In this document: piece after piece, positions 59,898 through 64,000 of the stretch
Layout: every line of letters begins with the position of its first letter
How positions within the stretch are numbered: the first letter of the stretch is position 1
Origin: Planctomycetota bacterium
GTDB taxonomy: Bacteria > Planctomycetota > Phycisphaerae > Sedimentisphaerales > Anaerobacaceae
NCBI GenBank assembly: GCA_019456255.1
Contig: VRUG01000004.1
Span: forward strand, 124,001-188,000
Direction: 5' to 3'
DNA: 64,000 nt
Position numbers and translations under genes: made by a program
Notes under the pieces: model-generated
What the model was told of the DNA's origin: nothing
The model's database searches: none
The model's input: the letters and a program-made list of their open reading frames with translations, nothing else

Positions 59898-59945
59898 ACC
59901 CCCAACACCTACCACACTATTCCAACCACCACAATATAAAAAAAG

Positions 59946-60020
59946 GGTGAAAGAGGGGAGTCGAACCCCCGACCCCTGGATCCACAATCCAGTGCTCTAA
60001 CCAGCTGAGCTACTTCCACC
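59946..60020 (-). tRNA. tRNA-His (anticodon GTG)
   Basis: Read on the minus strand, the sequence folds into a cloverleaf: acceptor GGTGGAAG/CTTTCACC (eight pairs including the extra G-1:C73 typical of tRNA-His, one G-T), D arm GCTC..GAGC, anticodon arm CTGGA-TTGTGGA-TCCAG with GTG, and T arm GGGGG-TTCGACT-CCCCT. CCA is not encoded. A run of T follows directly. Confidence 0.95.
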
Positions 60021-60641: not shown

Positions 60642-61253
60642 CTGATATGCAGACAGCAATACCGCCGCGAAGGAACATGGACCGTCCAACCCCTCACTAA
60701 CAGCTGCAAAAACTTCTACCCTGCCCGTTCTGCCGACCCAAAAAACAACGCTCCACGCATCATACCACTAACACAAGGACAATTCGTAATAATTGACGCT
60801 GAAGACTATCGGCGGCTTAGTAAATTTAGATGGTATGCGAGAAAATCGCATAATACATACTACGCTGTAAGAAAACACAAAGGAAAATCGGTAAAAATGC
60901 ACCGAGAGATAAAAAATGCTCCGGAGCACCTGGTTGTTGATCATATTGACCATGACGGCCTAAACAATAGAAAAGAAAATCTTCGGCTTTGCACTTACGC
61001 GCAAAACGCGAAAAATATTAAAAGCTGTGCTAAAAAAAGTTCTATTTATAAGGGTGTGTATTGGCATAAAGGCACGAAAAAGTGGGCTGTTCAGATAACT
61101 TGTGATGGCAAATCGCACCATTTAGGGTATTTCGATGATCAAACCGCCGCTGCTAAGGCTTATGATATAGCTGCGACAAAGCTCCACGGTGAGTTTGCAA
61201 GCCTGAATTTCCCTGATATTTCACCAAAAATCACTATTGATAAACTTCCTTAA
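60642..61253 (+). CDS. HNH endonuclease with AP2 domain, start unclear
   Basis: A homing-endonuclease-like protein. IPLTQGQFVIIDAEDYRRL and FRWYARKSHNTYYAVR lead into the HNH motif VDHIDHDGLNNRKENLRLCT, and the end is an AP2 DNA-binding domain (SSIYKGVYWHKGTKKWAVQI, HHLGYFDDQTAAAKAYD, LNFP). This is a common paralogous family in related genomes. The frame is open from 60480 to 61253, but the first ATG is at 60897 inside the conserved part, and no GTG or TTG occurs in frame before it. I give the CTG at 60642 as a tentative start. The gene may have lost its start or use a non-standard one. Confidence 0.7.
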   Translation: MICRQQYRREGTWTVQPLTNSCKNFYPARSADPKNNAPRIIPLTQGQFVIIDAEDYRRLSKFRWYARKSHNTYYAVRKHKGKSVKMHREIKNAPEHLVVDHIDHDGLNNRKENLRLCTYAQNAKNIKSCAKKSSIYKGVYWHKGTKKWAVQITCDGKSHHLGYFDDQTAAAKAYDIAATKLHGEFASLNFPDISPKITIDKLP

Positions 61254-61300
61254 TAACATTATAATCCTGGTTGTACTGAATAAGGAGGTTTTGTTAGAGA

Positions 61301-64000
61301 ATGGAATCCTGTGTAATTGAAATCACTTCTGCCGCTGCGAAGCATGGCAATTTAAATATAGGCAAATGCGGCCTTTCTTTTTTTCCTTCCGACGTTTTTG
61401 GTGGTTCGTCTCGAGATGATTATCTCGGAGTTCCAATTACTATAAAAGCCAAAGGCTTAAAAGAACCCATCAAAACCGACATCCCCACCCATAAAATCAA
61501 TAAGAAACCCCGAGGAATTTTCCGGGAGCGTGCTTGGGTAAAAGAATTTGTACGGGCTAATAAATTAATCCCAGGCGACAAGGTTACAATTAGACATAAA
61601 CAAAATAGAACCTATGAACTCGTCCCACATCTAAGAAAACTTACATATATCAGCCTTTTTAGTAATGCGGGGATAGGTTGCTACGGATTTAAACAAGCCG
61701 GATTCAATTGTGTCGCAACAAACGAATTACTTGAAGAAAGGCTATCCATACAGAAATACAATGACAAATGCAAATTCCAATCTGGGTATATCTGTGGTGA
61801 CATCACCAAGCCGGAAATAAAAAACAAAATTTTTGATGAAATTAGTACTTGGAGATTAGAAGAGAAAGTAAAAGATATTGATGTTGTGATTGCCACTCCT
61901 CCGTGTCAGGGAATATCAGTGGCCAATCACAAGAAGAAAAACGAGATCAACAGAAACTCTCTTATTGTTGAATCGTTAATCTTAACCCGAGAGATAAATC
62001 CAAAGTTTTTTATATTTGAAAATGTAAGGGGTTTTCTTAAAGCAATTTGTAGAGATAAGAATGGAGAACTTAAACCAATCAAAGATGCCATTGAGTTTCA
62101 TCTAGGAAATTACAATATCATTCATAGCGTTATAAATTTTTTGGATTACGGTAATCCCTCAAGTAGAACTAGAACACTAATATTGGGAGTTCGTAAGGAC
62201 TTATCCGAGATAACACCATTGGACATTTTCCCTGAATCTGAAAAGCTTCCAACATTAAGAAAGTCAATCGGCCATTTTAAAAAGCTTTCAAAAATGGGGG
62301 AAATTGATCCTGATGATATATTCCATAATTTTAGAAAATACCCAAAACATATGGAAACCTGGATTAGCGACCTTGAAGAAGGAAAGTCTGCATTTGATCA
62401 GGACGATGCCAGAAAAAGGCCACATCAAATTTGTGATGGCAAAATCATACCTAATAAGAATAAAAATGGTGATAAATATAGTAGGTGCCTATGGAACAAG
62501 CCCGGCTTCTGTATACATACAAGAAATGACCAACTTGCAAGCCAGAAAACAATACACCCGGAGGACAATAGAGTTTTTTCCATACGAGAAGTTGCGACCT
62601 TAATGTCAGTGCCCAAAGATTTTAAATGGGCCTCGCAATCTCTTGAAACTCTTAATGCGTTAACGTACGAAGAAAAACGAAAATTTCTAAAGAAAAACGA
62701 ACTCAACATAAGAAGAACTCTTGGCGAGGCAGTTCCGACCAGAATCTTTGAAAAGATTGCAAATAAGATACGCTTTTTTGTAGAAAATGAAAAAATTACT
62801 GACAAGAATATTGAAAAAACTATTGAAGATAATAATCTTCAGGACTTTTCCCATCTTTTGGCTTATTTAGAAAGTAATATTAAAAAATATGATTTTAGTG
62901 AACTTTCTAAAATCGCAGAGTTGGCTAACGCTAAACGTCTTCATAATGCTGCATACTACACCTCCCAGGATATTTGCTATAACATAATAAAAGATTTGCC
63001 TGATTTTACGAAAAAGAGAGAAATAAACATTCTTGAACCAGCTGTGGGTACAGGCAACTTTCTGCCACTACTGTTTTGTAAGTATAAAAACATAGAAAAG
63101 GTCAATCTTGACTTAGTCGACATTGACCATTGCTCTTTAAAGCTGCTTAAGCTTCTATTAAGAAAGATGAAAATACCTAATAATTTTAAAATCAATTATA
63201 TTAATGGTGATTTTCTTAATGGAAGCACTTGTTATTGCAAACAGTACGATTTAGTGATTGGGAATCCACCATTTAAGAAGATTACAAAACAGAAAGAGCT
63301 TCTAGCAAACTACAAGAAGGGGGCATTTAACACCAATACAAATAATCTTTTCTCGTTCTTTATCGAAAAATCATTGCTGCTAGGTGATTATGTTGCCCTT
63401 ATTGTTCCAAAGAGCCTGCTCTCAACTCCAGAGTTTAATAAGACAAGAGAGTTGCTCGACAGGCATAAACTAATTAAGATTTCCGATTATGGTGAGAAAG
63501 CCTTTAAAATAAAAATTGAAACTATCGGTATTATTGTCAAAAGCATTTTAAATGAAAACAAAGGCAACCTTGTAAAGATTGAGTCATATACCCTAAGAGA
63601 AACCCGTCACTTTCCGCAAAACCATATCTGCAACTCTATATATCCATACTGGCTTATTTATCGAAATGATTTTTTTGATAAGGTGGCAAAGCGTATAATC
63701 TTTAATATTTTTTCTGTATTTAGAGATCGCCAAATAACAAACAGGCTGTTAAGTAACCGTGGCAAGTATCGTGTTCTGAAATCGAGAAATGTAGAGAGCA
63801 ATCGCACCAGAAAACTGAATGGTTATGATTGCTACATAGACAATTTAGACGGCTTAAGTGTTGCCAAATTCCTAAACAAGGAAAAGGTTGTTATGATTCC
63901 AAATCTGACCTATAACCCTAGAGCTTGCTTTTTGCCACGTAATACTATCACAGATGGGTCAGTAGCATTAGCAACACCAATTAACGGGTATGATGTCAGC
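61301..64000 (+). CDS. fused C5-cytosine and N6-adenine DNA methyltransferase, 3' end outside window
   Basis: The frame is open from the ATG at 61301, behind TAAGGAGG, to the window end (900 codons). Residues about 73-107 (RERAWVKEFVRANKLIPGDK) resemble a B3/EcoRII-N-like DNA-binding barrel. Residues 115-490 are a C5-cytosine methyltransferase: SLFSNAGIGCYGFKQAGF (motif I), TPPCQGIS with the catalytic cysteine (about 200), FENVRG (motif VI), SSRTRTLILGVR (motif VIII) and GEAVPTRIFEKIA (motif X). From about 550 on is an N6-adenine methyltransferase: YYTSQDICYNIIKDL, ILEPAVGTGNFLPLL (SAM) and YDLVIGNPPF (catalytic). The DNA is AT-rich compared with neighbours. Probably part of a restriction-modification system with an asymmetric target. 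Confidence 0.9.
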   Translation, partial: MESCVIEITSAAAKHGNLNIGKCGLSFFPSDVFGGSSRDDYLGVPITIKAKGLKEPIKTDIPTHKINKKPRGIFRERAWVKEFVRANKLIPGDKVTIRHKQNRTYELVPHLRKLTYISLFSNAGIGCYGFKQAGFNCVATNELLEERLSIQKYNDKCKFQSGYICGDITKPEIKNKIFDEISTWRLEEKVKDIDVVIATPPCQGISVANHKKKNEINRNSLIVESLILTREINPKFFIFENVRGFLKAICRDKNGELKPIKDAIEFHLGNYNIIHSVINFLDYGNPSSRTRTLILGVRKDLSEITPLDIFPESEKLPTLRKSIGHFKKLSKMGEIDPDDIFHNFRKYPKHMETWISDLEEGKSAFDQDDARKRPHQICDGKIIPNKNKNGDKYSRCLWNKPGFCIHTRNDQLASQKTIHPEDNRVFSIREVATLMSVPKDFKWASQSLETLNALTYEEKRKFLKKNELNIRRTLGEAVPTRIFEKIANKIRFFVENEKITDKNIEKTIEDNNLQDFSHLLAYLESNIKKYDFSELSKIAELANAKRLHNAAYYTSQDICYNIIKDLPDFTKKREINILEPAVGTGNFLPLLFCKYKNIEKVNLDLVDIDHCSLKLLKLLLRKMKIPNNFKINYINGDFLNGSTCYCKQYDLVIGNPPFKKITKQKELLANYKKGAFNTNTNNLFSFFIEKSLLLGDYVALIVPKSLLSTPEFNKTRELLDRHKLIKISDYGEKAFKIKIETIGIIVKSILNENKGNLVKIESYTLRETRHFPQNHICNSIYPYWLIYRNDFFDKVAKRIIFNIFSVFRDRQITNRLLSNRGKYRVLKSRNVESNRTRKLNGYDCYIDNLDGLSVAKFLNKEKVVMIPNLTYNPRACFLPRNTITDGSVALATPINGYDVS

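What the first reader, a model, noticed from the sequence alone, without database searches (positions are those of the whole stretch)
61301..64000. Bifunctional C5-cytosine/N6-adenine methyltransferase fusion with a B3-like N-terminus
Both methyltransferases have complete catalytic motifs in one open frame. Two different base methylations suggest an asymmetric target with one modification per strand, as in type IIS systems, where paired or fused methylases of both kinds are known. The B3/EcoRII-N-like N-terminus would add a third DNA-recognition unit. The gene is AT-rich and lies beside tRNA-His and an HNH gene, a typical island position.
Basis: partly seen in the sequence, partly recalled or inferred. 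Interest (0 to 1): 0.7.

Follow-up and report, generated by a model that had tools for sequence, protein, structure and literature searches.

The report
B3-headed double DNA methyltransferase
A planctomycete bacterium carries a two-headed DNA-marking enzyme from a restriction system whose cutting gene is interrupted by a jumping gene, and its front end is a plant-like DNA-binding domain that this bacterial lineage has attached to many unrelated DNA-marking enzymes.

Summary
One open frame (944 aa; 900 inside the window) joins a complete m5C methyltransferase to a complete gamma-class (NPPF) adenine methyltransferase. Its first ~110 residues form a confident B3 fold (mean pLDDT 94; best solved matches LlaJI.R1, plant B3, BfiI, NgoAVII, EcoRII). 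The next gene, overlapping by one base beyond the window, is an HNH-type endonuclease, so this is a type II system with a double methylase. Fused m5C/gamma methylases are known (Esp3I/BsmBI), so that part is ordinary. In this assembly the nuclease gene is split by an insertion element (4-bp duplication) just before its HNH motif, leaving the methylase without an intact partner. The unexpected part is the B3 module. In 161 genomes of the same order it occurs at 37 places in 31 genomes, N-terminal to m5C, N4/N6-amino, gamma and D12 methylases next to nucleases of several families. Type A modules stay 54% identical on average while the rest averages 16%. Named hits are all planctomycetes. Bifunctional relatives on Moraxellaceae plasmids lack it. 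It therefore cannot set each enzyme's target; I infer a shared regulatory or DNA-anchoring role. A shared operator was sought and not found.

The parts
61237..61265 (+). sigma70-like promoter of the methylase gene: TTGATA (61237-61242), 17 bases, TATAAT (61260-61265)
   Evidence: read from the upstream sequence; consensus match only, no transcript data
61282..61288 (+). Shine-Dalgarno AAGGAGG, 12 bases before the ATG
   Evidence: sequence
61301..64000 (+). B3 - m5C - gamma-m6A methyltransferase, 900 of 944 codons (ends 135 bases past the window, contig C206:188135)
61301..61630 (+). N-terminal B3 module, residues 1-110
   Evidence: AlphaFold2 pLDDT 94.4; Foldseek and VIA matches; 37 places in 31 of 161 order genomes
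61643..62770 (+). C5-cytosine methyltransferase domain, residues 115-490, motifs in the usual order; PPCQ at residues 200-203
   Evidence: Pfam PF00145 E=3.7e-40; motifs
62933..64000 (+). gamma-class N6-adenine methyltransferase domain, residues about 545-944; NPPF at residues 655-658
   Evidence: Pfam PF07669 E=1.5e-13, NCBIfam TIGR02987 60 bits, below its cut-off; motifs
60897..61253 (+). HNH_3 + AP2 protein, homing-endonuclease type, directly upstream
   Evidence: Pfam E=3.3e-9 and 5.2e-9
59945..60019 (-). tRNA-His(GTG)
   Evidence: ARAGORN

Best explanation
This is the modification enzyme of a type II, probably type IIS-like, restriction-modification system. The m5C half and the gamma (m6A) half, each with its own recognition region, would each methylate one strand of an asymmetric site. 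The partner is the next gene, an HNH endonuclease of about 400 aa, split in this assembly by an insertion element just before its HNH motif, so here the methylase has no intact partner. The N-terminal B3 domain is an added DNA-binding module of near-constant surface, shared by many unrelated methylases of this planctomycete order. It does not set the methylation site; it most likely gives these enzymes a common second function, DNA anchoring or control of their own expression. Shown: domains, fold, gene order, nuclease split, module spread. Inferred: methylation activities, asymmetric site, DNA binding by the module and its purpose.
For: Complete catalytic motifs of both classes. Same m5C and gamma parts in Moraxellaceae plasmids: fused in Psychrobacter (830 aa), as two overlapping genes in Acinetobacter, each with the same nuclease gene nearby. 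HNH residues shared by the nucleases. Insertion: the 77-base contig end of C206 recurs at four other contig ends, the other half of the nuclease lies at the end of C339, with a 4-bp duplication ATCG and a 399-codon frame at the empty site. B3 fold. Module identity mean 54% against 16% for the rest over 171 pairs of 19 proteins. Partners are m5C, N4/N6-amino, gamma and D12 methylases; 8 of 11 neighbouring genes scanned hit a nuclease family above cut-off, of 5 kinds. Bifunctional relatives on plasmids lack the module, and no plasmid record matches the module.
Against: No methylome or biochemistry. Module presence is a minority trait: 15 of 75 m5C places in the order. No shared operator was found, so the control reading lacks support. 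In the window protein one well-conserved residue of the module (W72) is G. The nuclease halves sit on two contigs, so the insertion is inferred from contig ends and the duplication, not from one read.
Confidence: 0.7

Rival explanations
1. The B3 module is an autoregulator, as the N-terminal region of M.SsoII is: it binds an operator at its own promoter and balances methylase and nuclease.
For: Precedent: residues 1-71 of M.SsoII regulate transcription in its system (PMC3978073, abstract). The module is always N-terminal and separately folded. Most carriers have a nuclease gene next to them.
Against: No shared motif beyond promoter-like and A-tract sequence in the upstream regions: EM on 21 sequences (mononucleotide block shuffles only); hexamers and dyads on 17 (top hexamer GAAAAA in 9 of 17, reached by 6 of 100 shuffles).
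Confidence: 0.3
2. The B3 module is a third target-recognition unit that sets or narrows the methylation site of this enzyme.
For: B3 domains of BfiI, NgoAVII and LlaJI recognise specific sites (passages in PMC4267653 and PMC12707154).
Against: Its conserved positions barely change while methylases and nucleases belong to unrelated families. The bifunctional relatives on plasmids lack it.
Confidence: 0.1
3. The module anchors the methylase to host DNA, non-specifically or at a common host sequence, so that the host genome is fully modified.
For: One constant module on methylases of all chemistries; N-rich stretches that look like flexible linkers follow it in several.
Against: No direct evidence; 60 of 75 m5C places of the order do without it.
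Confidence: 0.3
4. The fusion is a solitary, perhaps decaying methylase kept for epigenetic or anti-restriction use.
For: The nuclease gene is interrupted in the assembly.
Against: The methylase frame is intact, and the insertion looks recent: the flanks still give an open frame.
Confidence: 0.25

Closest known systems
M.Esp3I / M.BsmBI (gamma methylase fused to m5C methylase)
   Same: One chain with a gamma m6A and an m5C methylase for an asymmetric site (PMC3874165, passages)
   Different: Order here is m5C then gamma, the m5C part is not circularly permuted (Esp3I's is: PMC5944983, passages), a B3 domain is added, the nuclease has no NCBIfam family above cut-off, and the match to the Alw26I/Eco31I/Esp3I adenine model is 60 bits against a cut-off of 353
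Bifunctional system of Psychrobacter plasmid pA18P2 (NZ_MN657046)
   Same: 45% identical over residues 109-943; same nuclease family
   Different: No B3 module; nuclease gene in the opposite orientation with three annotated genes between
Acinetobacter plasmid systems (NZ_CP114603, NZ_CP101116)
   Same: About 42-44% identical; methylase genes followed directly by the nuclease
   Different: m5C and gamma parts are two overlapping genes, no B3 module (the second record is cut at its start)
LlaJI.R1 N-terminal B3 domain, BfiI, NgoAVII, EcoRII-N
   Same: B3 fold
   Different: There the B3 domain is on the restriction side and binds the target or effector site; here it is on methylases and constant across targets
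M.SsoII / M.Ecl18kI
   Same: m5C methylase with an extra N-terminal DNA-binding region
   Different: Theirs is modelled on the phage 434 repressor (PMC3978073, abstract), not B3

Membership tests
m5C DNA methyltransferase | PF00145 above cut-off, PCQ and ENV motifs | tested here: met
   138.8 bits against 22; motifs
gamma-class N6-adenine methyltransferase | Eco57I-type domain above cut-off with (N/D)PP(Y/F) | tested here: met
   51.6 bits against 25.3; NPPF
Alw26I/Eco31I/Esp3I methylase family (TIGR02987) | score above curated cut-off | tested here: not met
   60.3 bits against 353.5
Esp3I-type double methylase | gamma domain before a circularly permuted m5C domain | tested here: not met
   order is m5C then gamma; the m5C profile matches 2-322 of 324 in order
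type II RM system with double methylase | methylases of both classes plus a linked nuclease gene | tested here: met
   nuclease gene starts on the last base of the methylase gene; HNH pattern in the split other half
type IIS system | asymmetric site, cleavage outside it | not testable with these tools
   no methylome or cleavage data
B3 DNA-binding domain | B3 fold | tested here: met
B3 DNA-binding domain (Pfam PF02362) | score above curated cut-off | tested here: not met
   18.6 bits against 30.1
B3 DNA-binding domain | sequence-specific DNA binding | not testable with these tools
   needs EMSA or SELEX
HNH endonuclease (partner gene) | HH...N...H pattern conserved in relatives | tested here: met
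   HHIFP, ENLI and a following H shared by the three plasmid proteins and the C339 half
HNH endonuclease (Pfam PF01844) | score above cut-off | tested here: not met
   17.0 bits against 21.4 in the Psychrobacter relative
M.SsoII-like autoregulated methylase | shared operator at carrier promoters | tested here: inconclusive
   none found, limited power

The most novel reading that the evidence does not exclude
The B3 domain is a lineage-owned adaptor: Sedimentisphaerales-type planctomycetes attach one DNA-binding head, with its promoter, to type II methylases of any chemistry and any target that arrive by transfer, so that one resident regulatory or anchoring signal governs many unrelated restriction systems. 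Module GC exceeds that of the methylase behind it in 16 of 19 genes, and one locus keeps a second copy of the promoter plus the first 27 module residues, as expected if the 5' cassette recombines separately.
Probability: 0.3. Interest if true: 0.72.

Novelty: new variant of a known kind. Interest (0 to 1): 0.5.

Why it matters
Double methylases are known, so the fusion alone adds one more member. The shared B3 head is different: one DNA-binding domain kept under protein-level selection on methylases of four chemical or structural classes, beside nucleases of several families, in one bacterial order. If it is a common control or anchoring device, it would show how a lineage domesticates incoming restriction systems, and it offers a ready domain whose binding site can be found by a single selection experiment.

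Tried and rejected
Shared operator: EM motif search on 200 bases before 21 type A genes (controls were mononucleotide block shuffles) and hexamer/dyad counts on 17 de-duplicated sequences (dinucleotide shuffles) gave nothing clear. Hidden DNA element inside the module: codon agreement among type A genes is only 1.14 times expectation over the module (19 genes), so conservation is at the protein level. Concerted evolution within a genome: four same-genome module pairs are 52-55% identical, no more than the average of 54%. Viral source: no relative of the module, the methylase or the nuclease in viral contigs; no match to the window's module in phage or plasmid records. Solved relatives by sequence: none for the module profile or the nuclease. 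tRNA-borne island: no tRNA repeat of 14 bases or more in the stretch searched. Small stand-alone relatives in other planctomycetes lie beside genes that I did not recognise as a defence locus (those neighbours were not scanned). Literature: searches for B3 domains on methylases and for Sedimentisphaerales with methyltransferase listed no paper whose title or abstract start describes such a fusion; most subscription journals are not held, so this is weak evidence of absence.

Full report
What is there. The frame starting at 61301 runs to the window's end without a stop and is 944 codons long in the source contig, ending 135 bases past the window. It holds an m5C methyltransferase (residues 115-490, PF00145, E=3.7e-40) and a gamma-class adenine methyltransferase (Eco57I family, E=1.5e-13), with the usual motifs PPCQ, ENV, EPAVGTG and NPPF. 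The m5C profile matches in the normal order, so the domain is not circularly permuted.

The N-terminus. By sequence the B3 match is weak (18.6 bits against a cut-off of 30.1). A model built on 15 aligned modules has mean pLDDT 94.4. Foldseek's best solved match is the LlaJI.R1 N-terminal domain (E=2.5e-4), followed by plant B3 domains and BfiI. VIA-align places FUS3, VAL1, LlaJI.R1, BfiI, NgoAVII, EcoRII and UbaLAI B3 domains at Z 10.0 to 4.7, and the first unrelated row is at 3.1.

The partner gene. Overlapping the methylase by one base stands a gene whose first 264-289 residues have no Pfam or NCBIfam family above cut-off. It matches genes on three Moraxellaceae plasmids at 36-37%. On those plasmids it accompanies the same pair of methylases: fused without the B3 module in Psychrobacter (830 aa), and as two overlapping genes in one Acinetobacter plasmid; in the second Acinetobacter record the m5C gene probably runs across the record's start. 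The contig ends inside the gene. Its last 77 bases recur at four other contig ends. The missing part was found with the Acinetobacter protein at the end of contig C339; the 77 bases before it recur, in 75 to 77 bases, in six other contigs. The element's ends are TGATCTGACCCC and GGGGTCAGGCCA, flanked by ATCG on both sides, and the empty site gives an open frame of 399 codons, against 405 aa in Acinetobacter. The C339 half bears the conserved HHIFP...ENLI...H pattern, an HNH arrangement. So the nuclease gene is split just before its catalytic motif in this assembly. That the element is of the IS3 kind is my recollection of such ends, not a test.

How ordinary the fusion is. A review states that the modification enzyme of Esp3I/BsmBI is a fusion of a gamma and an m5C methylase, while Eco31I/BsaI have them separate (PMC3874165, passages). 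The present enzyme has the reverse domain order, a non-permuted m5C part and a different nuclease, and misses the TIGR02987 cut-off. It works like those enzymes but is not a member by the tests available.

The module is shared. Searching 161 genomes of the order with residues 1-112 gave 37 places in 31 genomes. I fetched all 37 (window contig, C333 and 34 further loci). By sequence they fall into type A (22 places, window included) and a more distant type B (15). Partners, by BLAST groups and motifs, with Pfam on 11 of them besides the window and PF00145 places: 15 m5C (two of them cut short), 16 amino N4/N6, 2 gamma, 1 D12, and 3 fragments without a partner. No non-methylase fusion was seen in the order. 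Among 171 pairs of 19 type A proteins the module averages 54% identity and the rest 16%; in the 149 pairs whose rests are under 25% identical the modules still average 53%. On a tree of 34 modules the partner class changes at least 5 times (many branches weakly supported). Of 75 m5C places in the order, 15 carry the module, so it is common but not universal.

Partner nucleases differ. Of 11 neighbouring genes scanned, 8 hit a nuclease family above its cut-off: MvaI/BcnI (2), TdeIII (2), HNH_2 (2, with different companions), BsuBI/PstI and GIY-YIG; 3 had no match. Members of these families cut different sequences (recalled). A module of near-constant sequence cannot set all these targets.

Where else it occurs. 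In one genome for each of 84,980 species, a pattern-based scan confirmed 15 loci for type A (of 133 stretches that matched a pattern), all in records titled Planctomycetota, Planctomycetes, Phycisphaerae, Phycisphaerales or Sedimentisphaerales; the scan needs short conserved patterns and is not exhaustive. In 392 genomes spread over the phylum, 8 had a match to a mixed profile. A stand-alone relative (142 aa) lies on a Bradyrhizobium plasmid between an HmaA-type helicase (1587 bits) and a TmtA-like ATPase, with a DUF1156 protein after it, which looks like a helicase-methylase-ATPase defence locus. Stand-alone copies also occur in other planctomycetes.

What the module does. Three readings remain. 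Autoregulation has the M.SsoII precedent (PMC3978073, abstract), but no shared operator was found. Anchoring to host DNA is untested. A target-recognition role is unlikely. Module GC is above that of the methylase behind it in 16 of 19 genes and nearer the locus average in 15 of 19, and locus L062 holds a second copy of the promoter and the first 27 module residues. Both fit separate exchange of the 5' part, but other causes, such as codon choice near gene starts, are not excluded.

Verdict. A real double methylase of a known kind with an insertion-split nuclease gene, headed by a lineage-specific B3 module that deserves a binding experiment.

Noticed in passing
L135:4896-5324 (Bradyrhizobium plasmid NZ_CP049702): A stand-alone B3-module protein annotated as hypothetical sits inside an HmaA-helicase / TmtA-like ATPase / DUF1156 locus, perhaps an unrecognised DNA-binding subunit of that defence system.
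   Followed up: partly
L002 / G000:C333:13162-16482: The same genome has a second module-headed methylase (N4/N6 amino type) beside an MvaI/BcnI-family nuclease.
   Followed up: yes
L062:6950-7030 (-): A remnant with nearly the same promoter and the first 27 module residues lies 1.6 kb upstream of the complete module gene.
   Followed up: partly
L061, L078, L079: Short genes near three module loci look like Vsr mismatch nucleases (recalled from their sequence, not scanned).
   Followed up: no
G000 contigs C206, C262, C212, C47, C124, C339, C110, C26, C298, C193, C65, C14: A multi-copy insertion element leaves its end sequences in these contigs, in several of them at the contig end, and so breaks the assembly.
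   Followed up: partly
L139-L142: Small stand-alone B3 proteins of 120-147 aa in other planctomycetes, neighbours not scanned.
   Followed up: partly
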